Origin: Yponomeuta sedellus
Taxonomy: Eukaryota > Arthropoda > Insecta > Lepidoptera > Yponomeutidae
DNA length: 64,000 nucleotides
Direction: 5' to 3'
NCBI GenBank assembly: GCA_934045075.1
Contig: OW203736.1
Span: 1,656,591-1,720,590 of the forward strand
Shown here: positions 36,101 through 63,082 of the stretch, one piece after another
Layout of the letters: each line of letters starts with the position of its first letter
How positions within the stretch are numbered: the first letter of the stretch is position 1
Notes under the pieces: model-generated
Told to the model about the DNA's origin: nothing
Database searches by the model: none
Seen by the model: only the letters and a program-made list of their open reading frames with translations
Made by a program: the position numbers and the translations under genes

Positions 36101-39100
36101 TCATAACTGATAATATTTCGTCATCTAATCCAGTGTTACCAGCGTCTCTTGAAGCTAATAATAATTTCAATGTTTCGACTAACTCGTTTGGATCATTCCA
36201 AAAAATGTAGTCAACGTGTTTACCAACTTCTTTAAATAATGACAAGCCTTTTCCCTTCGGAGTGCTAATGGATTTTGCTGAAGGTGAAATTAATAAAGGT
36301 TTTATAATTTCCAAGTACTTAAATCCCCTGTTACTATTTATTGGTTGATTGGAATCATATTTACGTTTATGTGCATTCGTAACCAATAATATGAACTTAT
36401 AATTTTGTTTATCATCTTCAGTGACTATACTCAAATCGGGTTTTTTTTGGTAGAGTAATTCGTCTAGTCCTCTTGTCCTTTTAAACGACTGTCCACCTAT
36501 TTTAAATTCATTGTCGTTTATGATAACACGCTGTGATCCAATCATAGGTTTACCATTTTCTAATCTGATTCCGTAAGGTATATCTTTGAACACTTCCGAT
36601 GATAAAGACCACGATGATATAGACTTTGGAGTTGGGGTCGAAGCAGCATCAGAAGTTGTTTCAAAAAATAAATCACTCGTGTTACTCTTACAGATTTGGT
36701 CCAATTCCGAGTCACTTATAGAACGATCAAAATGTGTATCACGCAATGCATGTTGCGGTGTATCAGGTGATACTTTAGTTGACTCAGATAATTTTCTTTT
36801 CCTTGAAAGAGTAATTTCTGGTATTAAATTGTCTTCTTCCACGCTTTCCTGATAAACACCCAAATTTTCTCCTGCATTAGTACGGTTTCTTGCTAGCTGC
36901 TTTAATGGGTCAGTTACTGGTTTAAACATAGACTCCAATGCATTTTCGGAATCTAGTTTACTATTTTTTAAGCGTTGAAACTTCTTTTTAACAGCCTCAG
37001 CAGATTTAATTATTTGCTGCTTTATTGTTTTTTCATCATTCATTTTTACAAACAGTACAACTTTTCACTCAAAAGGAAAATAAGAAAGTGGTAGGTATAT
37101 GATTGAGAAGCTTTATTTATCAATTTCAATTATCAACATTAATAAAAGTATCAAATTTCATTCTGTAGCCACCGTTGTTTTTCTGACAGTCTTTATTTAT
37201 GACTAAGTAGCTAAAGGAATCTTTCCAAACCCTGGAACACATTTCTCGGAATTGCAGCCAGCTCATATCAGTGTTCACATGTTCATCATATACATGACGT
37301 AGATTTATATCATCTTGCTTAAATAAAATTAACAGATTTGCGTTGTCACGGATTAATTGTTGGCTGAGTATCAAGCTCCTTTAGCGTCAGTTGCGGGATA
37401 TCTTGACTGTGATAAATTAAAGCGACGTATTTCTGTAGGTAACTGGTATAATAATATAAGAAGATGCGCTGACATGCGTGCGATCGCGACAAGGTGTATG
37501 AGCGAGTGTTCTAGTCTTGAGGTGAGGCGCGCGGTGGCCGGGGAGCGCCCGGAACCGGTCCAGAGCCCCGCTGCACCCGCGCCGCTGCCGCAGCCCGCGG
37601 ATACCTGCTCGTGACGTCAGGAACAGATTCCCCGGGTTGAAGTGTCGAAGGCTTCAAGATAATGTTGAGGAGACGGGAAGTGGGCATACGTTATTGTATG
37701 CACGTGTGATGGTGCCCACAAACTTGGGTTTACCACTGCCCAAATTGATTGCATCTGCTCCTAAGACGTCCCAAAAGACTTCAGCGCCTACAAGGATATC
37801 GATCGCTGAAGGTATGTTGAACGTTGGATCTGCTAGCTGAAGACCTGGCGGAATGGCAATTTGATGGATGTCCACATAAGAGCCAGGCAGCGAGTTTGTG
37901 ATTTTCGGTAAGACGAAACAGTCTACATTCGCCCGATAACCACCAAAAAAGGATTGTAAAGTTATGTTGCAACTTTCTGAGGTAGTAGAGACTTGGCCAT
38001 TAATACCTGAGATGGCAGAGCTAATGCTGGACTTTACTAAGCCAAGCCTGCCACAGAGATCTTGGGTGACAAAGTTGGAAGTGCTGCCGTTGTCGAGCAA
38101 AAACCTGACTGTGTGCAGCCTTCCGTGGTTGTCTGACACCTTCGCCAATGCTGTGGACAGTAGGACATGGGTCTGATTAGAGCCTGAAGAGGAGGCAATA
38201 ATGTTTGATGATAAGGCAATATTGCCTCCGGGCTGTTCTTCTGAATATTGTTCCCTATGTAAGAGGGTATTGTGTTTGCATTTGCAATATTTGCAATGTG
38301 AAAGACTGCAACGCTTGTCTGAATGGCCGGGACGTAGACAGTTCATACAAACGTTGCATTCTGATGCTTTTTTGATACGAGATTCAGTATCAAGGTTTCT
38401 GAACGATTGACAACTAATTAAGAAGTGATCTTGAGAACACATAGGACATGTTAGTCTTTTTGAATTGTTGTTTGTTTTGTTTTTTGTAGTTGTAAGAAAG
38501 TTTTTTGATGATTTTGTTTCGTGTGAAGGTGTAGTTGTGATGAATGTAGCTTTAGTGTTTTTGTTGTCACTCAACGTCTCGAGTAAATCTGCTCTGTTGG
38601 ACAAAAATTTTAAGAACTCTCTTAACAAGGGAAGGGAATCTAAGTTGCCCTTAAATTCCTCCCACTGACGATTGGTCACGGCGTCCAACTTTTTGGACAT
38701 GATGAAAATGACCAACGTGTCCTGGCCAAGGGTCTCAAGAGCTCGTAAGTTTTTATTTGTGACGTCGATCATGTGACGCAAACTACTACTAGACTCTCTC
38801 TGAAGTTGTTCGAAACTAAATAGGGCCTGTACGTGATTGTTGACCAATAATCTTTCATTGTTATACCTCTCAGACAACAACCTCCAAGCTATGGCATAAT
38901 TGTCAGCCTTGAAATCCAGACTCTTAATTACCAATGACGCACTGCCGGTTAAAGCCGCGCGCAGGTAATGAAACTTATTTATGTCTTGTATACTGCCGTT
39001 ATCATGAATAAGTGAAATATACGTATCTCGAAATTCTAGCCAATGCTGATAGTCCCCGTTGAAGTGAGGCAAGTCTATCTTGGGAAGCCTGACAAAGTCG

Positions 39101-42100
39101 TGCCTGCAACCAGAGCCGGCGGAGTGGCCGTCGTCGTCGGGCGCAGCGGAAGAGGCGGCGGGGGCGGGGGCAGGCTCAAGCATTGCGCGGGCACGCGACA
39201 CCAACGAGTAGTATTGTGTCTCGAATTGCTCCCGCTCCTCGTATCTGCCATCTTTATCCTCCGACAACGTATCCAACTCTGTCTGCAATACGTCGAAATC
39301 CTTATATAGTTTCTCGACTAAAATAAGACGGCAGTTTAATTCTGAAAGTTGAAATTTGTCTAAGCTTGAGCTCGGTATAAGCCTGATAAAGTTGTTGAAA
39401 TGAGTAAGCTTAGCTTTGAAGCTTCCACGCTTCGCCACAAGATCCTTTAACCTTGCATCAGTCATGATAGCAAAAAATAATAATATTAAGGCAAAAGTGC
39501 GAAACAATAAGATGCAATACTAAAGAAGTGAGTGATTGCCTGCGTAATAGTGATAAATAGCAACGCTAACGGTAAACAAGATCAGTGACCGGCGTGGGAC
39601 CGGTCCTCAATACAAAAGAATCGGGAATATAGGTGAAGCGATAAGCAAGACGGCAATAAAATCACCTGCTAAGATAAGCGAACAAAAGACTAGCAGGTGT
39701 TGATGTTACGTAATTCTCTTGTTGCTAATGACGTTGAATTATTGACAGAATAGGTAAATAGCTATGTATGAAGAGATCAAAATGCCTGACCCGTATAGCA
39801 CTATTCTAAATTCCTGCAAAAATTATAAGGAAGACAGGAAATAAGGATATGGAACGGACTCACTCAGTACAAAAAGTCCCTTTGTTGGGTAGACTGTCCT
39901 CTGCGCGTCCGCAGCGGCCAGTCCAAAGTCCACGGCGAAATGCGCAGCAAAAAGACGGCGATCTTCGTTCCTTTCGAAGGACCAATGGCTGAGTATCAAG
40001 CTCCTTTAGCGTCAGTTGCGGGATATCTTGACTGTGATAAATTAAAGCGACGTATTTCTGTAGGTAACTGGTATAATAATATAAGAAGATGCGCTGACAT
40101 GCGTGCGATCGCGACAAGGTGTATGAGCGAGTGTTCTAGTCTTGAGGTGAGGCGCGCGGTGGCCGGGGAGCGCCCGGAACCGGTCCAGAGCCCCGCTGCA
40201 CCCGCGCCGCTGCCGCAGCCCGCGGATACCTGCTCGTGACGTCAGGAACAATTGTTTTGGAACTTTACTATATGTTTGGTTCAAGTAAAAGCAGTCTATA
40301 TTTTTGTGCCTACCCATAGCAAAATAATCACGAATATTATTTTGATTATCACAAGCTACATCATCAAATATTATGACAGAATTTTGAGAGGCATTATCAG
40401 GACTTAAAACTTCTTCGTTGTCTTGATATTTAAAATAACCGATTCCAGGAACTAAGTCCATGACCCTTTCTAAAAATATGTATATTGGCTGGAAAAGAGT
40501 TTTTGAATATAGGTAGACGTTACTGTAGTGTAAGCCGTCAGGATGTAAAAGTAACCCTATCACTAAGTTTGTTTTTCCACAGTTAGACGGTCCACAGACT
40601 ATGCAACGGATATTACTAGGTAAAAGTTTTCCGTGACGAAGAGTAACTTTGTTACAACCTACATTTATTTTTCCAAGAGTCAGTGAAGTTTTCTGTTTAA
40701 CGAATTTCATCTTAATGCAAATGTGTTACCACTAACATCGTCATTGATAAAGTGCCGGCGAACACTATCAACTTGACTTTTTATTTTGTTAATTAAAAAC
40801 CATTTCACTTTCCATTGTTTGAATGAACGGAAGTCAAAAACGAATTATTGGGAAGGCTATCACACTCAAGTGAGCACCATCAACGCGCGAAGCGCGGTGG
40901 TGGTGCGAACGTAGAGTGGGATAGACTTCCCAATAATTCACTACTCAAGGGTTGTGGCTGTGGTAGATTTATTCTGTTTTCTCTCAAACGAATTCCGAAT
41001 ATACTATCAGCAAAAATACCACCATCGCTGAACCTTCCCATTGAACCTATATCTACCATAATTATTCTTCGGGTAGCGTCGGCTACGCACATCATTACAG
41101 TTGAAAACCTGTGTTTATAACAGTAATATGAGGACCCAGATTTTGGGGGTGAAAACATGTACACATGCTTGCCATCAATGGCCCCGACGCAGTTTTTGAA
41201 TTGCCAGATTTCTTCAAATTGCTTTGAATTTTTTTTCCAATCATTTTCATTAAGTTCTGGCATAACCAAAGGTTGTAATACTGTCCACAAGGCATCGCAG
41301 ACATCTTCTATAATTCTTGGAACAGTCGATTTTCCAATCCTAAAGTTTTCAGCTATTTGTGAATATTTTGAACCAGTCGCCAAATACCTGTAATAATTAT
41401 AATATAGATTTATATTTATGTGTCGTGGTTTCAGTTAGAATAGAAGGGTCATTTCAAAATAATATCTTAATCAGTGTCGTTTTATTTCCGGAACTATAAA
41501 AGATTAGGCATTACTGAAATTATGTATTTACAGAATTTTCACTCGTTCAAAAGTTATAGCCATTTTTAAATAATAGAAAATAAACAATTAAAAGTCTAAG
41601 ATTCACACGAGCACAACACATTGAAATCAAACAAATAAAATGGATTTATCACTCGTTATTTATTAACATTTCAAATTTCGACGCCGCCGTCTGCCGCGAC
41701 CACGTACGAGAGATACAATCCGTTTTGTTTGTTTGATTTCAGATATTTTTTTTTATAAATTGGTTTCCCTTGAAACTCTGGTATTTTTTAATATTTATAA
41801 TGGTTATAAATTCTGCATGAGTGATAATGCGGTAAGTATATTTTGACTATGGCAATGTCAACATTTTAATATTTATAATGATTTCAATTATTTTTATTTC
41901 AGTAAAAACGGCTAAATCTAAGTGGAAAAAGTTGAGAGACCGCCACCGGGACGCATTAAAAAGGAAGAATGCCACTAGAAGTGGACAGAGTGGTAAACAA
42001 ATTCGTGAATGGAAATATGAGAAGGTAATGGAATTTTTGATACCATATATGACGAATAGAAACAGGACTACAAATTATACCTCACAAACAAATATAAATG

Positions 42101-45312: not shown

Positions 45313-45796
45313 TGTTTTACTATAAGCACCTTTTGTATCTAACTTTGATTTTTTGCTCAATAAATACTTTCACTTATATTCGTGTTCATTTTTTCTTATA
45401 CCAATTATAACTGACAAATACCTAAGGCAATAAAAAAATACTGACCAATTTTGACACATTCTGTTTCGTGAGATGAAACTCAAAAAAAAAGGTTTTGTCG
45501 TATGTCCCAGCACTTTTTAGGTTCTCAGTGATATGTCCTGTCAAGTCCGCCCAGTATACGCAATTATCCTCTTACGTCCACAGCTCCAAAAAGCCTAGAA
45601 GTTATACCGGCAAGCAGACCATATGTGGACTGTGAACGTGTAGAGCTATCCGTCTACAGACCTCATATGGTCTGTGGACAGTGAACCTGTTAAAATAGAT
45701 TAGACATTTGTATAGTCGTCATCAAAGAGAAAATAAAATAATCACTACGTTTAGTTGTAATTTCAGGGATTTTTATTTATATTATTTATAGGGAAA
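45313..45796. other. Junction between piggyBac-2 and MULE-3
   Basis: No gene. It begins with the 3' flank of the piggyBac-2 transposase (AATAAA near 45360). At 45618-45690 it holds an inverted pair, AGACCATATGTGGACTGTGA and its partner CTCATATGGTCTGTGGACAG, ending at a TTAA (45690-45693). It must contain the right end of piggyBac-2 or the left end of MULE-3, but neither could be fixed. Confidence 0.5.
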
Positions 45797-46125: not shown

Positions 46126-48583
46126 CCCTCTGTAGCGCTGTGTGACATTTCTGTCACAAACCGATTTTTTGCCATTTAAAAATAAAATATTATTTCTAGT
46201 CCGTGTTGCGTCCTCGTAACATCATTGTAACAAAGCGATTTATCTACTTAGTTTAACACAAAAAATGTAGATGGCGTTAGTGCCGCGTGATGTCGCTTGT
46301 TCGTCGACCGCGCTGTCTAAAGTACTTACTTGCTTTTTACGAATGAGTAAAAATCTGTGAAAAATAGAAAAACGCGACAAAAACTGTGTACATTTCGAAA
46401 ATATACAAGGTGAGTACATATACTATGTGGTGTATTGTGAGTTTTTATGTATTTGTATGCTTTTGATCAGTTTGACTGTCTGGCTTGTTTGTACCAGAAA
46501 TGTCACATTGCCTAACGTGGGTAATTTTTTTTGTTATGAGGTGGCTTACTACATGGCTCATTTGCTTTCTTTTTAGAATGTCTTTTCGACCTCTTGGGGA
46601 TAGCGAAATAGCTAATATACTGACTGAAGACAGTGAAGATGGTATGGAAGATGACGACGACAGCGTTGCAGATCCTGATTATCGTGCTGAGGATGAGATG
46701 GAACAAGAGCAGTTTTCTGGCGATGAAAATGAAGAAGAAGAAGAAGTGAACCTTGAGGAGATCATTCATAGCTTAGAAGACAATCAACCTGATATGTCTC
46801 CATCTACTTCTGCCGTGCCCACTGGTTCGCAACATACTCAATCTGTGGTACAACCTAGAAGGTCACTAAAACTCAACCTGCGATGGAAAATGAAAAGCCT
46901 TCTTTTGAATGAGCATCAATTACGTTTTCTAGGAAACGAAAACTTGCCAACAAATATTGCTTGACACGCCGATCCAGATTTTCTTGTCCTTGTTTCCTAA
47001 AGATTTAATTGATTTTATAGCAACTCAAACTAATTTATACATTGTGCAAAAGAATCCTAGTAATAATTTTCGGGTTACCGCAACAGATATCCAGCAATTT
47101 ATTGGCATTGTGTACATCATGTCTTTGGTTCAGCTTCCTCGAGTTACCTATCATTGGACTACTACTATTGGAACTCCTATGATTCAAGACATAATGCCGG
47201 TAAAGGCGTTTGAAAAGATTCGTCGATTTATACATTTTAGTGACAATTCACAAAACTTGCCTCGCGAACATCCAGAATTCGACAGACTATTCAAAGTTAT
47301 ACCAGTTGTACAGAAATTGAACCAATCTTTTGCCGAAATCCCTCTAGAGCAATATCTTTGTGTTGATGAGCAAATATGCTCTACGAAAGCCAGAAATAAC
47401 TTGAAAAGATATAACCCGAAAAAGCCTCACAAATGGGGTTATAAAATTTACGTTCTCAGTGGAGTATCTGGATTTGCGTACAAAATCGAACCCGAAACTG
47501 GCTCAGAAAATGTAGTATTGCCCAACGAACCTGATCTTGGTGCTTCGTCAAATGTTATTGTGCGTCTATCACGAGAAATACCTCGCAATCAAAATTATAG
47601 GTTATATTTTGACAATTACTTTACAAGCTTGCCATAGATAGAATACTTGTCAAAAAACGGTATACTGAGTCTTGGTACAATACGTCAAAACAGGATCCCA
47701 GATTGCAAACTACCTACAGACAAAGAAATGACCAAAAAAGACAGAGGCTATTCTGTTGAATATGTTGCTGATGTCAACGGTGTAGATGTAGCCACCGTAG
47801 CCTGGAAAGATAATAAAGTAGTAAATTTAGCATCTAGTTTTGTCGGAGAAATGCCAAAAGCACAAGTGAGGAGGTTTGACAAGAAGACCAAGCAGTACAT
47901 AACAATTGATCGTCCAAATATTGTTGGGGAATATAATCGCCACATGGGTGGCGTAGACCTTATTGATAGCATTATGGGATGCTACAAAATACGGCTTCGA
48001 AGCAAAAGGTGGCAGGTTCGAATGTTTTACCATTTATTAGATTTGACTATGGCAAACGCGTGGCTTCTTTACAAAAGAATTCATAAAGCTAAGGGCCTGC
48101 AGGAAAAACATTTGAACTCTGCTGATTTTCGCCTCGAAGTTGCTACAACTTTATGTAAGCTCGGTGTACCATCGAAGATGAAGAACCGTCGATCTATCGA
48201 AAACGAACTTCAATCAAAACGACACAAAGGTCCAGCACAACATGTTCCTCCAGAGGCAATCAGGCAGGATCAGACAGGACACTGGCCTCTTTGGTCAGAA
48301 AAGAGAATACGCTGTAAACTTCCTAAATGCTCTGGTGTCTCTCAAACAATGTGCGAGAAGTGTGGCGTCGCTTTATGTTACAATAAACAACTGTTTCAAA
48401 CAATTTCACCTAAGTTGAGATACCTTAATAATGCAATGTGACATTTATGTCACACTCCCTTTAAATGTGATTTTTTGGAATAAATAAATAAAGATTTTTC
48501 CCGAAACACGTGTATTTTTATTTCTTTCCATTAACGTTTTTCACTGCTTATTTTTAAAATTGGATATCTTGCCCTACAGAGGG
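46126..48583 (+). mobile_element. piggyBac-3, inserted in MULE-3 exon 2
   Basis: The ends are CCCTCTGTAG at both sides (left 46126, right on the other strand ending at 48583). The target TTAA is intact on the right (48584-48587) and reads TCAA on the left (46122-46125). The MULE-3 frame continues across in phase. Subterminal palindromes TGACATTTCTGTCA (about 46143) and TGACATTTATGTCA (about 48439) sit just inside the two ends. Confidence 0.9.
46577..48441 (+). pseudogene. piggyBac-3 transposase, frameshift plus nonsense
   Basis: An acidic N-terminus (MSFRPLGDSEIANILTEDSE) follows an acceptor-like TTTCTTTTTAG. The frame shifts near 46955. The catalytic domain starts IQIFLSLFPKDLIDFIATQT. The aspartates are in YLCVDEQICSTK, YRLYFDNYFTSLP and MGGVDLIDSIMG. 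A TAG at 47636-47638 sits right after the second aspartate block. The tail (to 48441) has a finger (CKLPKCSGVSQTMCEKCGVA). Two lesions make it inactive. Confidence 0.88.
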
Positions 48584-49309
48584 TTAAAGGAAAAAGCCAA
48601 ATTGAAAGAGACTGTTATAAATACAGATTTGCCAATCCCTCAAATATACAAAAATGCAATTTGCGAAATCCAAGACAAAGGCCTGGATTTCGTTACCACA
48701 ATGCCTAAATTTACAAACTTAAAAACTGGACTTTACAACGCTCGGAACAACGCAATCGGTACGACGAAAACGGTTTTTAGGTGTTTTAAAGAGGTGGAAA
48801 TACCTGAAGTACACAAAAAAAACTTGCTATGCGAGTTTCATGATGGAGATCAAAGAATGCTGGTATTTTGCAGTAATCGGGTACTAGAATTATTAATAAA
48901 AACAGGAGATTTTTTTGTTGACGGGACATTTCAGTGCTGCCCACCCCCATTCTACCAGCTTTTAACAATCCATGGGGATTTTGGCAGTACCGAGGATACA
49001 GTTCACACGAAACCATTAATATATGTTTTGATGCCTAACAAAAAGCAAACAACTTATACACATCTATTCGAATTACTGAAGATCAAATTACCCGATTTAA
49101 AAATCGAGCAAATCCACTGCGATTTTGAAGTGGCTTTGTGCAATACCATTACTCAGGTATTTCCGGATGTGTCTGTACGAGGCTGTTATTACCACTGGAA
49201 TAGAAATATGTGGAAAAAAGCAAAACAGTTGAAGCACAAAAGTAAGCGCGAGAGACGTATCGTTGGGCTCTGTGCCATTCTACCTTTGCTTTCGGAAGAG
49301 TGGATACAA

Positions 49310-49540
49310 GAGGGATGGAGTTACATAAAAAAAGAACATGCTGATAGTGGCCTGAAAATGCATCGATTTATGAGTTACGTGGGCAGATTACTAGGAAATC
49401 AGAACACTCGGAAAATCCTTAGTGTTTTTGGTCTGCGCCACCGCACGAATAATATATTGGAAGCCTTTCACTCCAAGTTAAACAAACAGTTAAATAAGAA
49501 TGTAACTTTGGCACGGCTACTCAACGTCCTTGCAAAAAAT
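49310..49540 (+). repeat. 231-bp direct repeat, left copy
   Basis: The sequence from GAGGGATGGAGTTACAT to CTTGCAAAAAAT is identical, base for base as far as I can compare, to 50920-51150. Both encode the same part of the MULE-3 transposase (EGWSYIKKEHADSGLKMHRF to LLNVLAKN). The two copies directly abut the two ends of the TIR element 49541-50919. Confidence 0.93.
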
Positions 49541-50919
49541 CGCGACAGACTGACCTTCACATTATTCTGTCACATCAGTGTGAAGGATAAGAAAGTTTAT
49601 TCCTATTCTTCACTTTTACACTGTCACTGAACGTCGTCACACTAGTGTGAACGTTAGGAAAATATTGTTCCTTACATTAACCTTTTGCTTCCACACTATA
49701 AAAGAATATGACTAACGGACACATTGTTTTTTTTTTTTTAAGTTATATTACTTAAGTATATCAGTCAGTTAATCGTTAGGTTGGTTGAAACCTCTTTGCA
49801 AATGAATGACACAACTAGGCACTTAAGATAATGCGATAGGATTGACATTGTCATGAATTACATGCTTTTGCTTGATTATTCCGTCATTTGCAAACAAATA
49901 AAATGGATTTTAATATTATTGATCGGAATGGCGGAAAAGTGCTGTTATTCGAGGGGTACCAATACCACAAACAAATAACATACGTAAACGGTAATACCAT
50001 TTGGTACTGCACTAATAGAAGGCATAAACATGCGGAAATAAAGTGTACTGGATCAATAACTACGAAAGTAAGTGTATAAATTTATTTTGCATAAGTCTTT
50101 AAATAAATTAATATCAGACAACTTCACACAAACTTGTGTTATGGGTACTAGAGGACGTTATACATAAATTATACATATATATAAATACATAAACACATAG
50201 AACATCCTTCACACTGATACCTTAATAGTTTAAATAACAACATTAAGTACATACACTGTTTAATATTTGAACCTTTACATCGTTAGAAGTATAACGATGA
50301 ATTTCCAAATATTTAAGACATATTGCTGATAAGGAAGTTTTATTAAATAATAGTAAACTGTTTTTTTTTAAATTGCTGAACGAGTGTTATTTTGTTTGAC
50401 GAGTAAACATTTTTATGTTTTAATTTATTGCTTATGTATTTTTCTTTCCGATATAACAAACTAATATTTAAAACGATCTCTACTATTAGGTACATTTAAA
50501 ATTATAAAATTCGAAAGTGTGTGAGGTACCTACCTCTAAGTAACGCTTGCACCATTTAACCTTAACCTTAGCCCATGTAACGTGCCATAAAGAACTTCGT
50601 TCTAATAATATTAGGAAAAGGTTATACTGTTCTTTTAGATAGTGTGACGGTTAAGAATTGATTTTCCGACAGGCCCACTAGTGTGATAGTGAGAAACACA
50701 AATTCTCCACCTTCACATCGCTCTGTCACACCGCTTCACACTAATGTGAAAGTAAGGATTTTAGTTTCTTGACATACACACTGATGTGGCGGTTAATAAT
50801 AAAAATATGACAGTTAGGAAATCGTTTGTCTGTCTAACACATTGGTAGTAAGGGTAGGATTTTTATTTCCATTCCTTCACACTGATGTGACAGAATAATG
50901 TGAAGGTCAGTCTGTCGTG
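49541..50919 (+). mobile_element. TIR element with a lone FLYWCH exon, flanked by 231-bp repeats
   Basis: The ends are CGCGACAGACTGACCTTCAC (left) and CACGACAGACTGACCTTCAC (right, other strand), matching inward through TCACATCAGTGTGAAG for about 48 bp. Variants of CACACTGATGTGA recur in the subterminal regions (49555-49680 and 50650-50910). It carries one FLYWCH exon but no transposase. By content it is a deleted MULE relative, yet its flanks are a 231-bp duplication rather than about 9 bp. Confidence 0.88.
49903..50067 (+). pseudogene. Orphan FLYWCH zinc-finger exon
   Basis: ATG at 49903 begins MDFNIIDRNGGKVLLFEGYQ, followed by TIWYCTNRRHKHAEIKCTGS, the paired cysteine pattern of MULE FLYWCH exons. 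A GTAAGT donor follows at 50068. No second exon is found in the rest of the element (to 50919), so it cannot make a transposase. It could make a short DNA-binding fragment only if read through. Confidence 0.75.
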
Positions 50920-51150
50920 GAGGGATGGAGTTACATAAAAAAAGAACATGCTGATAGTGGCCTGAAAATGCATCGATTTATGAGTTACGTGGGCAGATTA
51001 CTAGGAAATCAGAACACTCGGAAAATCCTTAGTGTTTTTGGTCTGCGCCACCGCACGAATAATATATTGGAAGCCTTTCACTCCAAGTTAAACAAACAGT
51101 TAAATAAGAATGTAACTTTGGCACGGCTACTCAACGTCCTTGCAAAAAAT
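50920..51150 (+). repeat. 231-bp direct repeat, right copy
   Basis: Exact second copy of 49310-49540. After it the transposase frame goes on with ENFGALQAATKRGKHDPCTD, so the left copy plus element is an addition to an original single-copy sequence. Confidence 0.93.
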
Positions 51151-51319
51151 GAAAATTTTGGCGCTTTGCAAGCGGCAACCAAACGAGGAAAGCATGATCC
51201 GTGCACTGATGGCGCCATACGAGCTATTTTATTTGTGTCGATAGATGTCAAACTTGCCTAAGTCCAGTTCCGTTCATTTCAACTTTTATTTGTTCATTTA
51301 ATTCAAGTAAATATGGCGG

Positions 51320-51445
51320 TTACACTATTTTTTTTATTTTTAATGCACTAACCCGTGCTAAGGAACAAATTTAAAAACCAATTTAGAGGCTAAAAATCTA
51401 AAAACCCCGGCATGGGTGAGATTTTTAGCCTCTAAATAGGTTTTT
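51320..51445 (-). mobile_element. Palindromic SINE, short copy
   Basis: Flanked by the 11-bp duplication AAATATGGCGG (51309-51319 and 51446-51456). On the minus strand it begins TAAAAACCTATTTAGAGGC, has an inverted partner of that segment, and ends with CCTTAGCACGGGTTAGTGC and an A-rich tail. It shares its head and tail with 62884-63082 but has lost most of the tRNA-like arms. Confidence 0.8.
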
Positions 51446-52787
51446 AAATATGGCGGACTTTTCTGACAAAATCAATTTAACCTATGAAGCTGTGGTTCAC
51501 GAAGAAAATAAGGGTCAAAGTCGAAACATTTTTTCAATCCAGCCTAAGTCGCACGTAGGTTGCAAATCACAAATGCCTAAGTCCATTAGAACCAATCACA
51601 CGCCGTCTCTAGACTGTCATGGCCACCATTCCTGTTTTATTGTCATGCGAGACACTGCGTTATTCAGTGTTTTTAATTAATAATGGAATATCTAATAAAT
51701 ACTGTGCCGCCAGAGTTAGCAAGGAAGAAGCAGAAAACCAATAGCAAGCAAAACATTAAAGAAAACCGGTAAGTTTTAAGCACTAAATCTGATTTCTTTC
51801 TAAAAGTACCTACGTTGAAGTACCCATAGATAGCGATGACGTCACGGTGTTGAACAGGGCCGGACCGTTTTGGTTGTAGGGATTAATAGATTGCTATTCG
51901 TTCATACGACTTTTTTAAATCAGTGAAATAAATACCAATGGACTTATTTATTTTTGAGGTACGTAATTAGGTATGTTATGTATGTATGTACCTACATCTT
52001 TTTTTTTTACTTTTAAATTCCAGTAAAATGGCTTACTTACCAACGTAACAAATCGGAACTTCATCGTCTACGACCATACTTTGTGTTTTTTATTATTATC
52101 CTAAATTAATTATATTTTTGTTTACAGGTACTTGGCAAAATCTTTACCTAAAAAGCCCAAATGTAAACACCCCACAAAAGGAAAATACAAATGTGAAACT
52201 TTGACTTCTAATAGCCTTTTCCACTTCCATAAAAAATTCTATAGCAGCAACAAAAAAACTGACCAAGATAATTTTTTGATAAAATATATAAGTACAAAGC
52301 CAGTGCTCCGAAAGCGACCCAGAAAAAATGCTAGAAACCAAAAATGTTTTTCTAACCATTTCTTTGTTCCTGTATGCTTAGTACGAGTTACAAGAAAACA
52401 AAACGAAAATTCGTATCGTAAGCTCGATAAACTATCGCAGTTGATACTTCCATACTGGCAGTTTCCGTCGCACTCGGCAGTATGAGTTTTATTTTCAACG
52501 TATCGTTTAAACTATGGATCCAATAGTTTGATCCAACGAAATAGTTACGAAATATTTTTCTTACTACTCGAACATGGTGAGATAGAAAGAGACAAACGTT
52601 TTGACGTCTCGCAGCTCGTTTTGGGTTGAAACTTAAAATTGTTTTTTTTAATATCATTTATTCGCCGGAAGCAAGTCCATTGGCATTTCAACAGATACAT
52701 TTGTACACGTACAATAGAAATAAACTATTACTGTAATTATTATAAAAATAAACATAACATTAACTTAAATCTAAACAAAAAATAACA

Positions 52788-55700
52788 TTAAATTTGTCCA
52801 ACGGTACTTGTGATGAACTGAAATACACACTTAAACAGTTTTGGATTTGATAAAATATCTTGAACGCGGCGGGGTACAACATTCCGAGGTTGACAGGTAT
52901 CAGCTGTCACTGTCACTGCAGGCACTGACGTCAACTTTGATGTATTTGAATTATCCGTTTGGACCGTTTCCTCATGCTCCTCTGCTTCAGAATCTCTCAA
53001 ATCAGCCACAAGTGTAAGTCGCTGCATATTGAATTTGGGACAACATTGAATAATATGAATTATGTCTGCATCTTCAGCTTCACAGTAAGTACATTTGCTA
53101 TTGTCTATTATCTTCATTCGATGTAAATGGGCAGGTGTTTGGCAGTGTCCAAATCTCAGGCGATTTATAATTGTAATGTATCTTCGCTCATTGGCATCCT
53201 TATGATTATGATACCATGGTTTAGTAGGTAATTCTTTTTGTATCTCTGCATACCATCTTCCTTTTGTTTCTGAAATATCCTTGTAATATTCATGCCATAG
53301 TTGTCTTTTCTTTTCTTTTAAAAACATAAATAAATCCGTGAATGGTATCTTGCATGTTTCACTGTGGTCCTCATCGTGCTGAGAATTGACTGTTTTGTCT
53401 ACTACTTCATTACCTTTGATCCCTCTATGAGATGGTACCCATTTGAAAGTCACTTGCTTATTGAGATTACATACAATGTTTCTGATCTTATACACTAAAT
53501 AATTAGTTTTATAATTAAAATTAAAATTTTGTAAAGACATTAACACACTTTTAGAATCAGAGACAATTATAATTTCGCTATATCCATCAATATTATTTAA
53601 GTTTTGTACGTAGAGCAAAGTTTGATAAATTGCATAAGCTTCTGCTGTATAAATACTACAATTTCTATCTAATTTAAAACATTTTGTTTTCTTATTTTGA
53701 GGATCATAATAACCAGACTGAACAGAATTTATTGACTTAGATCCATCTGTGTACAAATAAAAGCAATTACTTTTTTTGAAACAATATTCTATAAAATCAG
53801 TCTCATCTAAAATAAAACTAGTATCTACATTTAGTTTTCTTATTAATGTTTCATATTAACATTCATATACAGGCCATAACTGACTTTTGTACATATTTTC
53901 AGACAAATCAGTGACAAAACTCATAATGCGAGTAATTAATGGATATTGATTATTAAGAAGATCTGAAGCTGATAGATAAGAAGTTGACTGTAGAGAAGAA
54001 TGAAGAACCTCAGGTAAGCAAATTCTTTTACTTACTATTTCATTATTTACTGCTAACACTTTTAAGCAAAATTTTTCCGTAGCAAATATGCGCCTAATAC
54101 ATAAAGGTTGTATACAGGTCTCTGCTTCCATAGAATTAATAGGGGTTGTACGCATTGCACCACTAATAATCCTTAGTGCCATATTTTGTATCACATCAAT
54201 TTTTTTTAATAAAACAGGACTGATGTTCATATATACAAGAGAACTATAGTCAAAATGGCTACGAACCAAGCTCTTGTATAACATACTCAAAATTTTAGGA
54301 TCTGAACCCCAGAAGGTACCAGCTAATGATCTCATAACATTTATACCCCTCATTGCATTTCTACAAATGTAATTTATATGCTTATCAAATTTTAATTTTG
54401 TGTCAAAGATTACACCTAGAAACTTTTTTTCCTCTGTTTGTGGTAATAGTGCATTATTGTACTTAATATTTACAGAACTATTGCTACCAAATACTAAGAC
54501 TGAGCTTTTACTTGAGTTAATATTTAGTTTCAAAATGTTTGAATAATAACTATTGAGTTCATTCAAAGCCAAATTAATCTTTCTTTCAGCTATCTGTACA
54601 TTACTATCTACACAATATATTAAAATATCGTCAGCAAACTGTAATATTTTAACATCTTCAGTTATATGTTTAAGAATTTGAGAAGTATATAAATTGTATA
54701 ATATTGGGGACAAGGAGGCACCTTGCATTAGGCCTTTATAGGCATTTTTTGGGCCATGTAAAATATTATTATATTTAACAAATAGAGTGCGACCAAAGGA
54801 AAAATTAAAGAGCCACTTAATTAATTTTCCAGGAAGTTTCAACGAGTGGAGAACCTTTGCCATTTGATGGAGATCCACATTATCATATGCTCCCTGGACA
54901 TCAAGAAACACACATACTGCTGCTGACTTGGATAGCAAACAGTTCTTCATATCTATCAGGTATGTAGTAAAGCTTTCTACTGCACTTTTCCCCTTCCTAA
55001 ACCCAAACTGACATGAAGGAATTATATTCTCATTTTCAACAAAGTAGTCTAATCTTATTTTTATCATTTGTTCACATACCTTTCCTATACAAGATGCTAA
55101 AGAGATAGGTCTATATGAATTAGGATCATCATCAGGTTTCTCTGGTTTCAGTATAGGTATAACACACTGAGTTTTCCATGACTCTGGAATCAATTGTTGA
55201 GACCAGAGAGAGTTCAGAATTTGCAGTAAAATATTTTTAGCTGATAAATGTAACTTTTGTAACATGATGTAAGGGAAACTATCTAATCCTGGAGTAGTAT
55301 TTTTCCTTAAAGTTAGAGCTATTTCAAATTCCTCGTGTGTAAAAGGTTTTAGTAAAAAAATATTTGATTCATCATTACTATTTGTATTAAAGATATTCTC
55401 TAAATCTATATTGTCAACATCATTTGCTGGCTGTGCCAATTTGTTCATAAAAGTACCTATCCACTCGTCATTCTTAGAGGTGTTTCTATTTGTGTTTATT
55501 CTTTTAAATCTTCGTATATAATTCCACACTTTAGAAATTGGGGTATATCTATTAAAAGATGAGCATAAATTTTTCCAACTAGAGTTTTTAGCTTCTTTAA
55601 TAATAAGTTTTTTCCTAGCATCTATTCTCTTGTACTCAATATAATTTTCAATTGTCATATTACACCTATACTTTTCTAATGCATCTCTTGAATTATTTAC

Positions 55701-56633
55701 AGCCTCAGCACAGTCATCACTCCACCACGGAGCCGGGGCACTACAGGTTTTACCAGCGTGACATTTAAACACAGGTACACACTTGTTCCTTAAAGTACTT
55801 AGTATTTTGCACATCTCATCATATTTTTCTAATGAATCATCTATAGTAAAATTGAAATCATTAAATAGAACCTCTGATAAATTTTCATAGCTTTCCTAGT
55901 CTGTTTTATTAAATAGAAATTTCTCAATATTATCATTTACTTTATAGTTTGTAGTGGTTATAATAATGTCAATAAAGGTCTGTAGGTGATAGCTGCCCAT
56001 AGCATCATCACCTACGTGCCACTCACATAGTGGAGCTAGGTCTGGGCTGACACAAGTCACATCTATAGCTGATGCATTACAGCCAGGTCTACCGACAGTG
56101 GTCGGCGCACCAGTGTTCAATATGCATAAATCACATTCATCAAATAAGTCTAACAATTCCCTAACTCTGGGATTTGTAATGTCACATCCGAAGGCAACAT
56201 TATGTGCATTAAAGTCACCAGATACAATGCAAGGTTTTGGTAATTGGTTTATTATATTTCTCAGTTTATTTACCCTAATAAGACTATTGGTGTTTTTTGT
56301 TTTAGGTGGGCAGTATACACAGAGGACAGACAGAGGGCCGTTAACGGTTGATAATGATATTGCTATACATTGAATATCTTGATAGAAACTAGTTTTTAAA
56401 CATTTATATTTAATTGAGTTGCGAATTAAAATACCTACACCACCATGTTCATTTTTAGCTTGTTTTCCTACAAAATTGTAGCCAGGGATTGATAAAAAGG
56501 GTGTTGAATCTTTTAACCATGTTTCATTAAGAAGACACACATCTACGTTATTTTTAAGCAATGAAGATTTAAGTAAAGCCTTTTTATTATTGACACTCTG
56601 AATATTATGTTGCATTATTTTTAAGATATCCAT
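52788..56633 (-). pseudogene. LINE ORF2: AP endonuclease, reverse transcriptase, RNase H
   Basis: Endonuclease (56633-55896): KIMQHNIQSVNNKKALLKSS, LLNETWL and IVSGDFNAHN, the acidic residues being visible. An in-frame TAG (55898-55896) ends this part. Reverse transcriptase (55895-53856): SYRPISLASCIGKVCEQMI, CQFGFRKGKSAVESF, FLDVQGAYDNVD, GLMQGASLSPILYN and FADDILIYC. An in-frame TAA (53858-53856) follows. RNase H (53756-52788): YTDGSKSI, AEAYAIYQTL, VSDSKSVLMS and HRGIKGNEVVDK, then a zinc-finger-like CTYCEAEDADIIHIIQCC. Apart from the two nonsense codons the frame is continuous, so the copy died recently. Confidence 0.9.
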
Positions 56634-57805
56634 TATTTAGAAAGATTTTGCATTAAAATGTCTTTAATGTGTGCAGTTGTGTTAATTTTATTTGAATTTC
56701 CTAGCATAACTAAGGTTTTTATAATTTTCTGTAAGAATAGCTCGTCATTTACAAGGTGATCATACATGGTAGGGATCGGTGTAGCTTGAGCTGTCGCTTT
56801 AGATGTTGATTCATGTGAGCATTCATGAATATTTTCAGTCTTCTTAGTTTGTGTCTTAGTCATAGATTTTGTTTTGGAAGAAAATGTCACTGGTTTTTCC
56901 TGTATTTTGGGTAGAGCAGGGAAATCTTTTGATGAGAGAACTGTGGAGTACATTCTGCTTATGTAATTTGATTCATGCCGTTTAATTTGTTCAAGTTTGA
57001 TTGGGCAAAACTTTGAGATAGCTAAATGATCTCCACCACAATTACTACATTTCAAAATGTCAGATGTACATTCCTTGTAGCAATGTCCACCTGAGCATTT
57101 TGAACATACCTGCTCGTTCCTGCATATTTTTGCATTATGCCTAAACCTCATACATTTGAAGCATTGCATCAAAGGGGGTACATAGGTATACACTCGGTAC
57201 CTCCAGCTATCCAAAAATACAAATTGGGGGAGGGAAGTCCCTACAAATGTCAGACTAACAGTGGTGAGGGGTACAATTTCACCATTTACTTTTTTGGTAA
57301 ACCTTCGGACACCTACAATTTCCGAGTCTGCCATCAGTTTTTCGTACAATTCGACATTGCTGGTCTCCTTTGCGATAAATCGTATGGTCCCAATCCTTTC
57401 TACCGATGATACTGGTATGTAAGCACGCATGTTATGTTCCTTAAGACAACTATGGCCTAAGAAGTCATTCGCCGCTACCGCCTGCTTGAATACTACCATA
57501 ATTTTACTGGCATTTATTCGTCGTTTTTCTTTGATACCTTTCACATTTTTGAAAATTTTCGACAAGTGTAAGGGGTTCTTGTTTCCAATTTTTTCATTAA
57601 TTCCTTCAACGTAAATCGGAAATTCCTCCTTATTACTGTTGTCAGGGTATGACCTTTTATACTCCGGTTTTATAAATGGTTTATACTTATCTTCATCGAC
57701 CGGGGCTGGGGATGAAGATTGCTGCACCCTTAATTTTCTTTTTTTCCCGCTTGTCCGCGGTGTCGACATAATCTCGTCGTCATCACCGTCGCTTTCCGCC
57801 TCCAT
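56633..57805 (-). CDS. LINE ORF1, gag-like protein with CCHC knuckles
   Basis: A 390-residue intact frame with ATG at 57805. It has a basic N-terminus (SGKKRKLRVQQSS), a central region (FPIYVEGINEKIGNKNPLHL) that fits the ORF1 RNA-binding domain and three knuckles: CFKCMRFRHNAKIC, CSKCSGGHCYKEC and CSNCGGDHLAISKFC. A coiled-coil-like C-terminus follows. The stop overlaps the ORF2 start (ATG at 56633), a spacing seen when ORF2 is translated by re-initiation. It binds the LINE RNA. Confidence 0.88.
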   Translation of the reverse strand: MEAESDGDDDEIMSTPRTSGKKRKLRVQQSSSPAPVDEDKYKPFIKPEYKRSYPDNSNKEEFPIYVEGINEKIGNKNPLHLSKIFKNVKGIKEKRRINASKIMVVFKQAVAANDFLGHSCLKEHNMRAYIPVSSVERIGTIRFIAKETSNVELYEKLMADSEIVGVRRFTKKVNGEIVPLTTVSLTFVGTSLPQFVFLDSWRYRVYTYVPPLMQCFKCMRFRHNAKICRNEQVCSKCSGGHCYKECTSDILKCSNCGGDHLAISKFCPIKLEQIKRHESNYISRMYSTVLSSKDFPALPKIQEKPVTFSSKTKSMTKTQTKKTENIHECSHESTSKATAQATPIPTMYDHLVNDELFLQKIIKTLVMLGNSNKINTTAHIKDILMQNLSK

Positions 57806-60506
57806 TTTTCCTCAACAGGCCAAGGATCACTTGGATTTACCAATAAAACAGAAATTATTAAAATTTTGTTTTAAAAAAGGCGCCCTTCCTCTTTCCCGCC
57901 AAAAAAGGACCCCACTTAAAATTGTGTGTGTGTAGAGTTGCCAGGCGTCAACCAACCCAAAAAATACTGATTTTGTGCCAACCAAAAATACTGATTGGGG
58001 AATAATTATGTTCTTTTTAGTAAACTTATTCAAGAAAGTGGCAACTTCGATATTGTTACCCTTGGTCGTGCGTGGCGCCACTTTTTGAATTGCTTGTTTA
58101 TTTTTAATTGGTTTTAAGTGCAAACTACAAATTTTAGAGAAACTTTAATAATGAAGACCAGCGGGGGCCAATTCCTTGTTTTGGTAGATTAAAGTCTATA
58201 TGGTCACTTTTAAATTAACCTTTTTTCCAATGATACCCTTCGGGAGATTCATACGAAGATTAACTTTTCAATTCACAACAAAAAAATTGGTGAGAAAGGA
58301 AACTATTAGTTTGACACTTTTCGTTAAGTTTTTCTATGCGTAAACTGTCAAACTCTTAACTCATACTGCCGAATTGTATGGATCATCGAGCTGACACTCG
58401 AAAAGTTCCGTTCGAACTTGAACAGTTTAAGACGAAAAAAGTCATACTACCAATTTTAGTTAATAATAGTTACCGCTTGAGGCGCTGATGGTAAATGTAT
58501 GGAAGTAAACTGCCAGTTTCATCGAGACGATAAACTATCAAAACTCATACTAAGCATACTGATCACAAGAGTAAAGAACTTATTCCCGTATGCCTGCAAG
58601 CCTTTTGTGACATTCTGAGTATAAAACAGGGGATAATAAAAGGCGTCACTAAAAGATTTTTTGAAACTGGAACTAGTGCATCTGAGAGAAGAGGACCGCA
58701 AGAAATTTGCATTCAGATCAAAATTAGAGTCCGTTCAGAAATTCATAAAAAAATTCAAACCTTTGGATTCACATTACTGCAGGGGCAAAATTAAACAGAG
58801 AATTTACCTCGACCCGAGTCTCAATATTTCTAAGATGTAAGTACAAAATGTACGAAGATCAGGCCATGCCCGGATTTTCGGTAACAAAATCTTATTTTAG
58901 AAAGGTTTTCAATACCACTTTCAACATCGGGTTTGGATCGCCCAGACAAGATGTTTGCTCCGATTGCCTGCAGTTTTTGGAAAAACTAAAAAGGACCCCA
59001 AGCAGCGCAGAAAAAGAAACCATACGTGCGCAATATTTAATTCACAAGACACGAGCAAAATGCTTTTTCCAACTATTAAAAGATGAAGACCCAGAAATAC
59101 TTATTATATCATTCGACTGCCAAAAAAATTTACCAATGCCCAGGGTGCCCGATCAATCGACTTACTATTCGAGGCAGTTATATATATATAATTTTACTAT
59201 TGTTCAGGGCAACTCCAAATCCAGTTTGACGAGTGAAAATGTCAGCTCATATGTGTGGACTGAAGATACGGCATTAAAAGGTTCCAACGAAATATCATCA
59301 TGTGTTCATCACTGCCTGAATCGATTGAATATGGAAGGGAAAAAAATCGTCAGACTTATGGCCGATGGTTGCGGTGGCCAGAATAAGAACTCGACATTAA
59401 TTGGGATGGTTTGTAAATGGCTACACGACACGCAGTATGATATTTCTAAAGTGGAGATAATTTTTCCAGTAACCGGCCACAGCTTCATACCTCCGGACAG
59501 AGTTTTTGCGCTAACCGAAAAAAAAATTAGAGGAATAGAAAAAAATTTAAATCCAGAAGACTACATTAGTTTAATGTCATCTAACGCGACTATCTTTCGT
59601 GTAGTTGATGAAGTGCCAGTGTTCGACTGGAAGGAGGCTTCCAAAACAGTATTAAAAAATACCCAGAGCCTGCACTTCCAAATAAGCAATGTAAAAAAAT
59701 TGTGATCGAAAAACAGTCAAGAAAAATTTTTGTACGTGGTGAATTGTCTTACAGAAATGAAAACTCTTGCCAATTACAAAAAGAGGAAAAAAGATTTCAC
59801 AAATATTACCCGAAAGACTACAGGGGACTGTTGCCATCAAACAAGAAAAGCGTGATGACGTGAATAAATTATTAATTAAACACTTTGGTGAACAGTGGAG
59901 AGATATTTCAGAATTACAATATTTCAAAAATGTCCTATCTGCACCTAATCAGGATACCGAAAATGCGGATAACGGAGCTTCTTTTTTACCAGACCAGCAT
60001 ATTCCGGAAGAGATATTTGACTTTGTTTGACCTTTTTTTCTTCGTTGACCTTAATTTTCTACATAAACTGACTAAATAATATTATAATTCTAATTTGTTT
60101 TTTTGTATATCCTGAGTTCGTCCCCTGATTAATTAAATTACATCATTCATGCCTAAGTCCTAGTATTATATTTCATACTCGCCAATGTCCAACGCCCTAT
60201 TTATCAAAACCGACTAAATCCATTACTGTTAGATCATATCCGCTTAAGTCTTACTTATTTCATCAATTTTTAATGTTTTTCTAAGAGAACTTATTTTGCT
60301 GTGTATTTATTTGGCATTGCCAGCTAAGTATTCGTATCACTGAACATTATTTCTAAAGATTTTATAGGTAAAAGTTGAATTGTCAAAAAACGTCATTCCC
60401 CATAAAATTGTTAGACGTGACTTAGGCGCTTTTGGTATTTATCGACACATTTCAGTTTATAGATGGTGACATTAATCTCGGCCATGCCATGGAGAAATTA
60501 AGATAA

Positions 60507-60969: not shown

Positions 60970-61327
60970 ACTTTCAACCCTTTATCCCCCGTGGCACTAC
61001 AGCTTGGCACTACTTGTAGTGCCATGGGAAATTTATATTTCCTTTGACTTTACTGGTAGTGTCAAGGGCAATAACGCATTTCCAGTGACACTACACTGGT
61101 TGCAGTTGATTCATGGGAAATATTATTTCCTGTGGCACGAGGGGCTATCTTATCTTTGTGTAAAACTTCTTGGAGTTTGAGTACTGGCATTTCAATAGGA
61201 ATAATAACATATCTGCTATATTATTGACATTGACTAGTTAGGCAGATAGTGTCAATGGCGTAAATGACATTTCAAAAAATACATATCGTTAAAATTTTCG
61301 ACTTTTTACTGATCTCATTTCATTTAA

Positions 61328-62771
61328 ATGGAAGTTGACAAAGATAGTGAACTTTTCTTCAGACAGCATAAAGGCGGCACAGTAGTTATGCATTGTGATT
61401 ACCAATAACATAAGCTCAGAGAATTCAAATGTGGTTCAAGTGTTTGGCGGTGTTCTGCTTATAAGAAAAGTAAATGTCCAGGAACAATAACAATCAAGGT
61501 GGGTGCTGTTGTGCCTATGTAATTGTCTAAAAGAATTATTAAGTATAATTATTCAATGTGATTTCAATTATGTATTAATTCTTTGTTATAGGACACAAAA
61601 GTTATCAAAAAGTCACAAAAAGCCCACACTTGTAATCCATCTGTGGGTAGGGCTATAGTTGCAAAAGCAATTGACAATTTGAAGCATGAAGTTACAAAAA
61701 GTGACAAACCAATCACGCAGTTATATGATAAAGCCTGTAATTCATTTGAAAATAAGGGTCTGAATTTTGTAGCCTCGCTACCCCCACTTTCAAGTGTGCA
61801 ACATTGCTTGTATGATATGCGGAACAAGTCGTTGGGTGTATCTAAAACAGTCTATAATAATTTCGAACAAGTCCAAGTACCAGTCGATTTCGCAGATTTT
61901 GTTTTAGCTGACTACTATCACGAAGGCAGTAGAATTTTATTATTTTGTTCACCGGAATGCAGAAAAATCATTGGTGGAATCCGTGAATTTTTTGGAGATG
62001 CTACATTCAAAAGTTGTCCTCCGCCGTTTGCTCAACTATATAGTATTCATGGTGACGTCGGTAGCACGGTACAAACCACAAACGTGATCCCATTAGTTTT
62101 TGCTTTGTTACCAAACAAGAAACAGAAAACTTACCTAACATTATTCAATTTATTAAAAACTGTGCTACCAAATTGGTGCCCTCATAGTTTTCATTGTGAT
62201 TTTGAGTTGGCAGCTATCAATGCATTGACAGAAGTTTTCCCCAACATTCAACAGAAAGGATGCTTCTTTCATTGGTCAAGAGCTGTATGGAAAAAGGCCA
62301 AAGCACTAAACTTTACTAAGAAGAAGGGGCACAAACGTATTGTTGGAATAACATCCGTCCTTCCATTGTTGCCCGACGAAGACATTGTGCGTGGTTTCGA
62401 ATATGTGAAGGAGGAATGTGGAGATTTGGGCATGCAAAAGTTTATAAATTACGTGGAATGCTTCTGGCTTAAAAAAAAACTTCAGCAAAATGTTAAGTGT
62501 TTATGGTCTCCGTCATAGAACCAACAATGTTATGGAGGGTTGGCACTCGAAAATTAACAAAAGGGTAACGAAAGGTACGATCATATTACCAAGACTGTTG
62601 AAACTTCTGAGGGAGGTGCAGAAAACAAAAATTACTAAACGACGACACAATAAAGAAGGTTCAAAACGGTCAAAAACCTCAATCGAAAATGATGATTATA
62701 TTATGAATATTCTTTTACAATTTATAAACGGCGAATTATCAGTCGGAAACACACTGGAGAAATTACGATAG
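61328..62771 (+). pseudogene. MULE-4 transposase, nonsense plus frameshift
   Basis: Exon 1 (61328-61498) is a FLYWCH finger with an in-frame TAA at 61406-61408, where the family has a tyrosine; VWRCSAYKKSKCPGTITIK follows. Exon 2 starts at 61592 after TTGTTATAG (DTKVIKKSQKAHTC). Catalytic acidic residues are in FFGDATFKSCPPP, FHCDFELAAINA and NNVMEGWHSKIN. One shift lies in the run of nine A near 62475, just before LSVYGLRHRTNN. It ends at 62771 with NGELSVGNTLEKLR. The two lesions are single-base, and the rest is well preserved. Confidence 0.9.
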
Positions 62772-62883
62772 TGCAGTAAAATTTTCATTTCCTAACATTT
62801 TGTTTTAATTTTAACATAATAATTCCGCTAAATAATCGATATCTTATTAGGACAGCCAATCAATTTGATGATTACTTACCTAC

Positions 62884-63082
62884 ACAATTTTTATTTTTAA
62901 TGCACTAACCCGTGCTAAGGAACAAATTTAAAAACCTATTTAGAGGCTAAAAATTTCACCCATGCCGGGATTCGAACCCGCAACCTCTGGCTATCCGTAC
63001 CAGATAGCCGGTACGGATAGCCAGAGGTTGCGGGTTCGAATCCCGGCATGGGTGAAATTTTTAGCCTCTAAATAGGTTTTTA
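62884..63082 (-). mobile_element. Palindromic tRNA-like SINE, long copy
   Basis: Flanked by the 14-bp duplication GATTACTTACCTAC (62870-62883 and 63083-63096). Two 73-bp arms (62929-63001 and 63010-63082) are perfect inverse copies around the 8-bp loop AGATAGCC. Each arm contains the B-box-like GCGGGTTCGAATCCCGGC. On the minus strand the palindrome is followed by TTAGCACGGGTTAGTGC and an A-rich tail. Long target duplications and an A-rich tail point to LINE-driven retroposition. Confidence 0.88.

What the first reader, a model, noticed from the sequence alone, without database searches (positions are those of the whole stretch)
49310..51150. TIR element flanked by an exact 231-bp duplication of its target
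A 1,379-bp element with clean inverted ends and a FLYWCH exon sits between two identical 231-bp copies of MULE-3 coding sequence. The copies abut its ends exactly. Mutator-like elements normally duplicate about 9 bp. The right copy continues the transposase frame, so the left copy plus element is extra sequence. Possible causes are a widely staggered or replicative insertion, repair of two distant nicks, insertion into one unit of a prior tandem duplication, or an assembly join of two alleles.
Basis: seen in the sequence. Interest (0 to 1): 0.82.

Follow-up and report, generated by a model that had tools for sequence, protein, structure and literature searches.

The report
MULE transposon flanked by 231-bp repeats
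A small jumping gene sits between two identical 231-base copies of its target; its two-ended relatives examined elsewhere in this genome make ordinary 8-base duplications, so this looks like a rare transposition accident of a known kind.

Summary
In detail: exact 231-bp copies (49310-49540, 50920-51150) abut a complete 1,379-bp TIR element, E. In the window's own assembly (657.5 Mb, 57 contigs), E belongs to a FLYWCH + MULE-transposase family; E has lost the transposase exon. All 11 other fetched copies with both ends have 8-bp target duplications (10 exact, one 7 of 8), so 231 bp is not the family's habit. An assembly join is unlikely: the whole structure is assembled twice on contig C16, 79 kb apart, with 7 differences inside E, and its right junction a third time. 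Two paralogues without E carry one 231-bp copy. Insertion into a prior tandem duplication does not fit. Best reading: E's two ends joined target sites 231 bp apart on homologous DNA (hybrid-element or alternative transposition), leaving unlike 8-bp flanks. A single-event 231-bp TSD, or a crossover between two ordinary insertions, is not excluded. Exchange between paralogues probably copied the structure. New example of a known kind; modest interest. No reads were available.

The parts
49310..49540 (+). left copy of the 231-bp duplicated target (MULE transposase coding sequence of host element H)
   Evidence: 100% identical to 50920-51150; single copy in two paralogues without E
49541..50919 (+). 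element E: internally deleted non-autonomous FLYWCH-MULE, 1,379 bp, both ends intact
49541..49587 (+). left terminal inverted repeat (CGCGACAGACTGACC...)
   Evidence: 45 bp perfect from 49543
50873..50919 (-). right terminal inverted repeat (CACGACAGACTGACC... on the minus strand)
   Evidence: 45 bp perfect to 50917
49903..50067 (+). FLYWCH zinc-finger exon (MDFNII...), followed by a GTAAGT splice-donor-like site
   Evidence: PF04500 E=1.7e-8 for the frame 49876-50079; start and donor site read by eye
50278..50279 (+). internal deletion junction of E, where relatives of about 2.55-2.59 kb carry about 1.18 kb more, with the MULE transposase exon; 2-bp overlap at the junction
   Evidence: L014, L015: E positions 1-739 and 738-1378 separated by about 1.18 kb; MULE domain in the extra part
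49533..49540 (+). 8 bp outside the left end of E (CAAAAAAT), unlike those outside the right end
50920..50927 (+). 8 bp outside the right end of E (GAGGGATG), also the start of the right 231-bp copy
50920..51150 (+). right copy of the 231-bp target; continues into the natural transposase C-terminal part
48584..51231 (+). MULE exon region of the host element H, which E interrupts
   Evidence: PF10551 E=2.5e-10 for the frame 48488-49630; same blocks in A, D and C5
45684..46122 (+). upstream part of H holding its own FLYWCH exon (alignment start; the true boundary is probably the TTAA at 45690-45693)
   Evidence: PF04500 E=6.7e-5, 23.4 bits, just under the cut-off of 23.6; present in A, D, C5
49000..49145 (+). 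interval in which this copy switches from D-like to A-like variants (exchange between paralogues)
   Evidence: variant sites; the A-like side rests on two sites, 49145 and 49174, plus presence of E

Best explanation
E is a non-autonomous, internally deleted FLYWCH-MULE whose family normally makes an 8-bp TSD (shown). At this locus its two intact ends were joined to two target positions 231 bp apart in the same sequence carried by sister or homologous chromatids: the left end at the end of the 231-bp segment, the right end at its start. That is what a hybrid-element (alternative) transposition gives. An E already inserted at the right-hand position supplies one end from one chromatid; the other end, from the sister, is inserted 231 bp upstream; [quoted passage not shown] The structure was afterwards carried to a second C16 copy by unequal exchange between copies of host element H (mosaic shown, route inferred).
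For: Both ends of E reach the base at which the ends of the other copies lie; the last two bases vary in the family, CG, TG or TC. The duplications abut both ends and no short TSD is present. The family TSD is 8 bp in 11 of 11 other two-ended copies. Paralogues D (L011) and C5 (L012), without E, have one 231-bp copy with 230/231 identity and continuous flanks. The structure is assembled twice, and its right junction three times. Precedents: maize hAT/Ac duplications whose endpoints coincide with transposon termini, with natural cases of 116-148 bp and 1.26 kb, 3 among 7,611 insertions (PMC3744419, passages and sections 10-11); citrus MULEs with 'dissimilar' TSDs read as each end inserted at a different site (PMC4334395, passages).
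Against: No reciprocal deletion product and no parental allele with E at either position and a normal 8-bp TSD was seen in the assembly (the listings score only the best candidates). [quoted passage not shown] The same product could come from a crossover between two ordinary insertions, and I found no chimerism test with enough power.
Confidence: 0.5

Rival explanations
1. True long TSD: in one integration event on one duplex the transposase made its two strand transfers 231 bp apart, and gap filling copied the whole stretch.
For: The anatomy is that of a TSD in every respect but length. HERV-K (HML-2), also inserted by a DDE enzyme (recalled), has rare long flanking duplications: its paper estimates 451 TSDs and tabulates 8 above 10 bp, of which 96, 206, 111, 250, 61 and 450 bp are the six long ones, two with preintegration alleles determined (PMC5488345, passages with Table 2; its authors also offer a recombination explanation).
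Against: All 11 other two-ended copies fetched show 8 bp. It needs 231 bp of duplex between the joined ends to be opened or displaced.
Confidence: 0.2
2. Two ordinary insertions of E, 231 bp apart in allelic, sister or paralogous copies of H, followed by crossover or conversion inside E.
For: Exchange between H copies at this locus is visible: piggyBac+/- and E+/- occur in all four combinations among B (window), A, D and C5, and B switches from D-like to A-like variants between 49000 and 49145.
Against: Needs two insertions into the same 231 bp; ends of E were found at only a few dozen places in 657 Mb (lower bounds), so local hopping must be assumed. Neither parental insertion was seen.
Confidence: 0.22
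3. Assembly join of two alleles or haplotypes.
For: I had no reads. The region is a cluster of near-identical copies, where assembly is hard.
Against: The complete structure is assembled at two places with different left surroundings and 7 differences within E (6 substitutions and one 1-bp indel); the E/right-copy junction is present at a third place with one difference in the 231 bp; no N in the loci held.
Confidence: 0.05
4. Insertion of E into the junction of a pre-existing 231-bp tandem duplication.
For: Small tandem duplications exist in the window (171 bp at 18777, 91 bp at 23205).
Against: With the 8-bp TSD of this family, insertion in such an array would leave 8 extra bases beside E or an intact tandem on one side; neither is seen. 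It would need a TSD-free insertion at exactly the junction.
Confidence: 0.02

Closest known systems
Hybrid element insertion / alternative transposition (Drosophila P, maize Ac/Ds and hAT; PMC3744419 passages and sections 10-11, PMC2775673 passages; the P-element papers themselves not seen)
   Same: Duplication endpoints coincide with intact transposon ends; short flanks at the two ends of the element do not match; 231 bp lies within the natural maize range of 116 bp to 1.26 kb.
   Different: Here a single element separates the copies, whereas the natural maize cases have two elements, one initiating each repeat; the superfamily is MULE and not hAT; no reciprocal product seen.
Citrus CitMule_ARR and CitMule_3 'dissimilar TSDs' (PMC4334395, passages)
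   Same: MULEs whose two ends are flanked by unlike 9-bp sequences, read as the two ends having inserted at different sites.
   Different: CitMule_ARR goes with a 2-Mb deletion and an inverted element; here a 231-bp direct duplication. The authors hold that the ARR deletion does not fit accepted alternative transposition.
HERV-K (HML-2) insertions with long TSDs (PMC5488345, passages)
   Same: Insertion flanked by exact or near-exact direct repeats, six tabulated at 61-450 bp.
   Different: Retrovirus, not a TIR transposon.
Phantom-type MULEs with FLYWCH (PMC6446971, passages)
   Same: FLYWCH in some members, TSD of 8-10 bp, TIRs of 18-613 bp, arthropod hosts among others.
   Different: Clade membership of this family was not tested by a tree, and the host species here is not named.

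Membership tests
Mutator-like elements (MULE superfamily) | MULE transposase domain in full-size members of the family | tested here: met
   PF10551 E=4.7e-12 (L015) and 3.9e-12 (L014), between ends matching E; in both the transposase region is split over two frames
Mutator-like elements (MULE superfamily) | Target duplication of 8-11 bp | tested here: met
   11 of 11 other two-ended copies: 8 bp with ends set at the same base, 10 exact and one 7 of 8. Not met at the locus in question, where the duplication is 231 bp
Mutator-like elements (MULE superfamily) | Terminal inverted repeats | tested here: met
   45 bp perfect
Phantom clade | Phylogenetic placement with Phantom transposases | not tested
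   No tree made; FLYWCH and 8-bp TSD are only compatible features
Hybrid-element / alternative transposition product | Duplication endpoints coincide exactly with intact element ends | tested here: met
Hybrid-element / alternative transposition product | Unlike short flanks at the two ends, no common short TSD | tested here: met
   CAAAAAAT versus GAGGGATG
Hybrid-element / alternative transposition product | Single copy of the segment at the empty site | tested here: met
   L011 and L012, 2 of 2 paralogues without E
Hybrid-element / alternative transposition product | Reciprocal deletion product or donor allele | tested here: inconclusive
   None seen in the assembly; it could have segregated away and needs population data
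Hybrid-element / alternative transposition product | Element not chimeric (the distinction from ectopic recombination in PMC2775673) | tested here: inconclusive
   Pieces of the 11 two-ended copies are 92.6-98.7% identical to E with no clear split between its halves; 7 of 11 have both 45-bp TIR arms identical to E's, so the TIRs do not discriminate
Insertion into tandem duplication | 8-bp TSD beside E or residual tandem on one flank | tested here: not met

The most novel reading that the evidence does not exclude
A MULE transposase can complete one concerted integration with its two strand transfers 231 bp apart on one duplex, giving a genuine 231-bp TSD, so that the normal 8-bp spacing is a preference and not a strict rule.
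Probability: 0.2. Interest if true: 0.5.

Novelty: new member of a known kind. Interest (0 to 1): 0.3.

Why it matters
It is a clean natural example, with base-exact ends, two empty-site paralogues and a sibling copy, of a MULE whose two ends joined different target positions. Such events duplicate target DNA on both sides of a transposon and can be mistaken for long target-site duplications, prior tandem repeats or assembly errors. It also suggests that exchange between nested transposon copies spreads such a structure. It does not by itself indicate a new insertion mechanism.

Tried and rejected
Family-wide long duplications: rejected, 11 of 11 two-ended relatives fetched show 8 bp. The 35 loci divide into 2 of this locus (L009, L010), 2 empty paralogues (L011, L012), 11 two-ended copies, 19 one-ended copies (L023, L025-L042) and 1 internal fragment (L043). 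The 19 were searched for a recurrence of the 8 bp beside their known end within the 3.4-4.4 kb held, and for recurring flank sequence. None gave a credible second end. Flank recurrences in L023 and L041 were judged dispersed repeats: L041 after a self-comparison (several copies, the relevant pair 79% identical), L023 alone. These 19, L043 and two one-ended matches that were never fetched (C12:7946755, C26:8408353) are not in the TSD count. The genome searches scored 40 of 48 and 40 of 52 candidates, so copy numbers are lower bounds.

The first alignment of empty sites was wrong, because an exact-string search failed on paralogues with one mismatch; one search replaced it. The direct display of D at the second MULE also failed; I use the coordinates. 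The reading that A is a simple segmental duplicate of the window was dropped: A and C5 share the left part of H but have different outer flanks, while the window and D share two insertions in H. That the second exact repeat in the window (265 bp) is a similar case was rejected by eye: 37361-37625 / 39986-40250 look like LTRs with a 5-bp TSD.

Full report
Observation. The window carries two identical 231-bp blocks, 49310-49540 and 50920-51150, directly abutting a 1,379-bp element E, 49541-50919. E has inverted ends that are perfect for 45 bp from its third base. At its inner edges there is no exact 6-13 bp duplication. E encodes a FLYWCH exon (PF04500, 1.7e-8) and interrupts a MULE transposase frame (PF10551, 2.5e-10). 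Seven protein relatives of the interrupted frame were found, five of which were aligned. The residues left of the left copy and right of the right copy are both natural, so the target originally held one 231-bp copy.

What E is. The search of the window's own assembly (G000, 657.5 Mb in 57 contigs; window = C16:1656591-1720590) gave 95 matches from 40 scored of 48 candidates. I fetched 35 loci. Two relatives, L014 and L015, are about 2.55 and 2.59 kb long and carry, at E position 738/739, about 1.18 kb more sequence, which encodes a MULE transposase split over two frames (PF10551, 3.9e-12 and 4.7e-12). L016 has an interval of the same size, not scanned. E is therefore an internal-deletion derivative of a FLYWCH-MULE. 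In the listing no copy other than the window's and A's spans E's deletion junction. The host element H, which E interrupts, is a different FLYWCH-MULE, 37% identical in protein over 216 residues.

How the family normally inserts. Apart from the locus and its duplicates, 11 fetched copies have both ends (L013-L022 and L024). All 11 have an 8-bp target duplication when the ends are set at the same base: 10 exact, L019 7 of 8; some extend by chance to 9 or 10. Their duplications all differ, so they are separate insertions. The other fetched E loci were one-ended (19) or an internal fragment (1) and were not counted. Another TIR element in the window (60979-63908) also has an 8-bp duplication, CTTTCAAC, which by the overlap of alignments is single in paralogue D. 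The 231-bp case is thus one in 12 insertions scored, and no other long one was seen.

Is it real. The whole structure is assembled a second time at C16:1626640-1628479 (copy A, L009), with the four 231-bp blocks of A and the window all identical and 7 differences within E. A third place, C16:1742378 (copy C, L010), holds the right third of E, the right junction and the right block with one difference; its left side is cut by another rearrangement. Two paralogues lack E: D (C16:1793340, L011) and C5 (C5:9213681, L012). Both hold one 231-bp copy, 230 of 231 identical, with 298/300 and 294/300 identity to the left and 79/80 each to the right. These are true empty sites. No locus held contained N. 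Raw reads were not available.

Exchange between copies. The window (B) and D share a piggyBac insertion between the two exons of H; A and C5 lack it. B and A have E; D and C5 do not. All four combinations occur. At informative sites B matches D and not A up to 49000, and matches A and not D at 49145 and 49174. In the upstream part of H, B differs from D at 2 and from A at 15 of 448 columns. Against a simple picture: B is alone at 45717, 48882 and 48897, shares 48946 with C5 only, and the A-like side rests on two sites besides E itself and the sequence that follows H. B looks like a D/A hybrid, as expected if unequal exchange between H copies made the local duplication in the order A-B-D (inferred). 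This could explain why the odd structure is present twice, not how it arose.

How it most likely arose. Both ends of E are complete and joined cleanly, which points to transposase-made joints. The 8 bp left of E (CAAAAAAT) and right of E (GAGGGATG) differ. A product with one complete element, unlike flanks and the intervening segment on both sides is what hybrid-element insertion predicts when one end from a resident element and the other end from its sister are used at a nearby site. I know the P-element work only through later papers (PMC2775673 and PMC3744419, passages; PMC1207714 is not held) and recall. In maize, duplications made by alternative transposition have endpoints that coincide with transposon termini, and three natural ones (116-148 bp and 1.26 kb) were found among 7,611 hAT insertions (PMC3744419, sections 10 and 11). 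In citrus, MULEs with unlike 9-bp flanks were read as each end having gone to a different site, though the authors say that their deletion does not fit accepted alternative transposition (PMC4334395, passages). Closely spaced VANDAL21 elements (MULEs by recall) in Arabidopsis were linked to alternative transposition in 2025 (PMC12312487, passages).

Rivals. A single concerted integration with a 231-bp stagger gives the same sequence and cannot be excluded; HERV-K shows that long flanking repeats happen elsewhere (451 TSDs estimated, 8 tabulated above 10 bp; PMC5488345, passages). A crossover inside E between two ordinary insertions 231 bp apart also gives it, but needs two hits in the same 231 bp. 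The H sequence next to it is found near full length at four places (window, A, D, C5), with four further 50-base matches (8 of 8 candidates scored), and none of the four is such a parent. A prior tandem duplication is contradicted by the absence of the 8-bp TSD. An assembly join is made unlikely by the repeated, diverged copies.

Verdict. Observation confirmed; most likely a real but exceptional product of ordinary transposition chemistry plus paralogue exchange. In my seven paper searches I saw no report of this exact arrangement for an animal MULE, but those searches were narrow and cover open-licence papers only.

Noticed in passing
37361-37625 and 39986-40250: Exact 265-bp direct repeats 2,625 bp apart that look like LTRs of a short LTR element, with a 5-bp ATTGT duplication read by eye.
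   Followed up: partly
46126-48583: piggyBac-type element (PF13843 in two frames) inserted between the two exons of host MULE H; one TTAA copy reads TCAA. Shared with paralogue D, absent from A and C5.
   Followed up: yes
TTAA at 45690-45693 and leftwards: A further insertion in H ending at TTAA, shared by the window and D and absent from A and C5; the adjoining frame looks piggyBac-like by eye only.
   Followed up: partly
60979-63908: Another TIR element (79-nt arms, 81% complementary) with a MULE-transposase-like frame (by eye, not scanned) and an 8-bp CTTTCAAC duplication, single in paralogue D by alignment overlap.
   Followed up: partly
51232-60450: About 9.2 kb that separates H's transposase from its continuation at 60451, including a reverse-transcriptase-like frame on the minus strand (by eye); its start is also present in A and C.
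   Followed up: partly
18754 / 50430 (L010 position 3001): Copy C joins sequence like window ..18754 directly to the middle of E (50430..), next to a 171-bp tandem repeat at 18777: a further rearrangement in this duplication cluster.
   Followed up: partly
5509-8072: Long inverted repeats (178 nt, 97%, and 63 nt, 92%) about 2.1-2.4 kb apart, possibly another TIR element.
   Followed up: no
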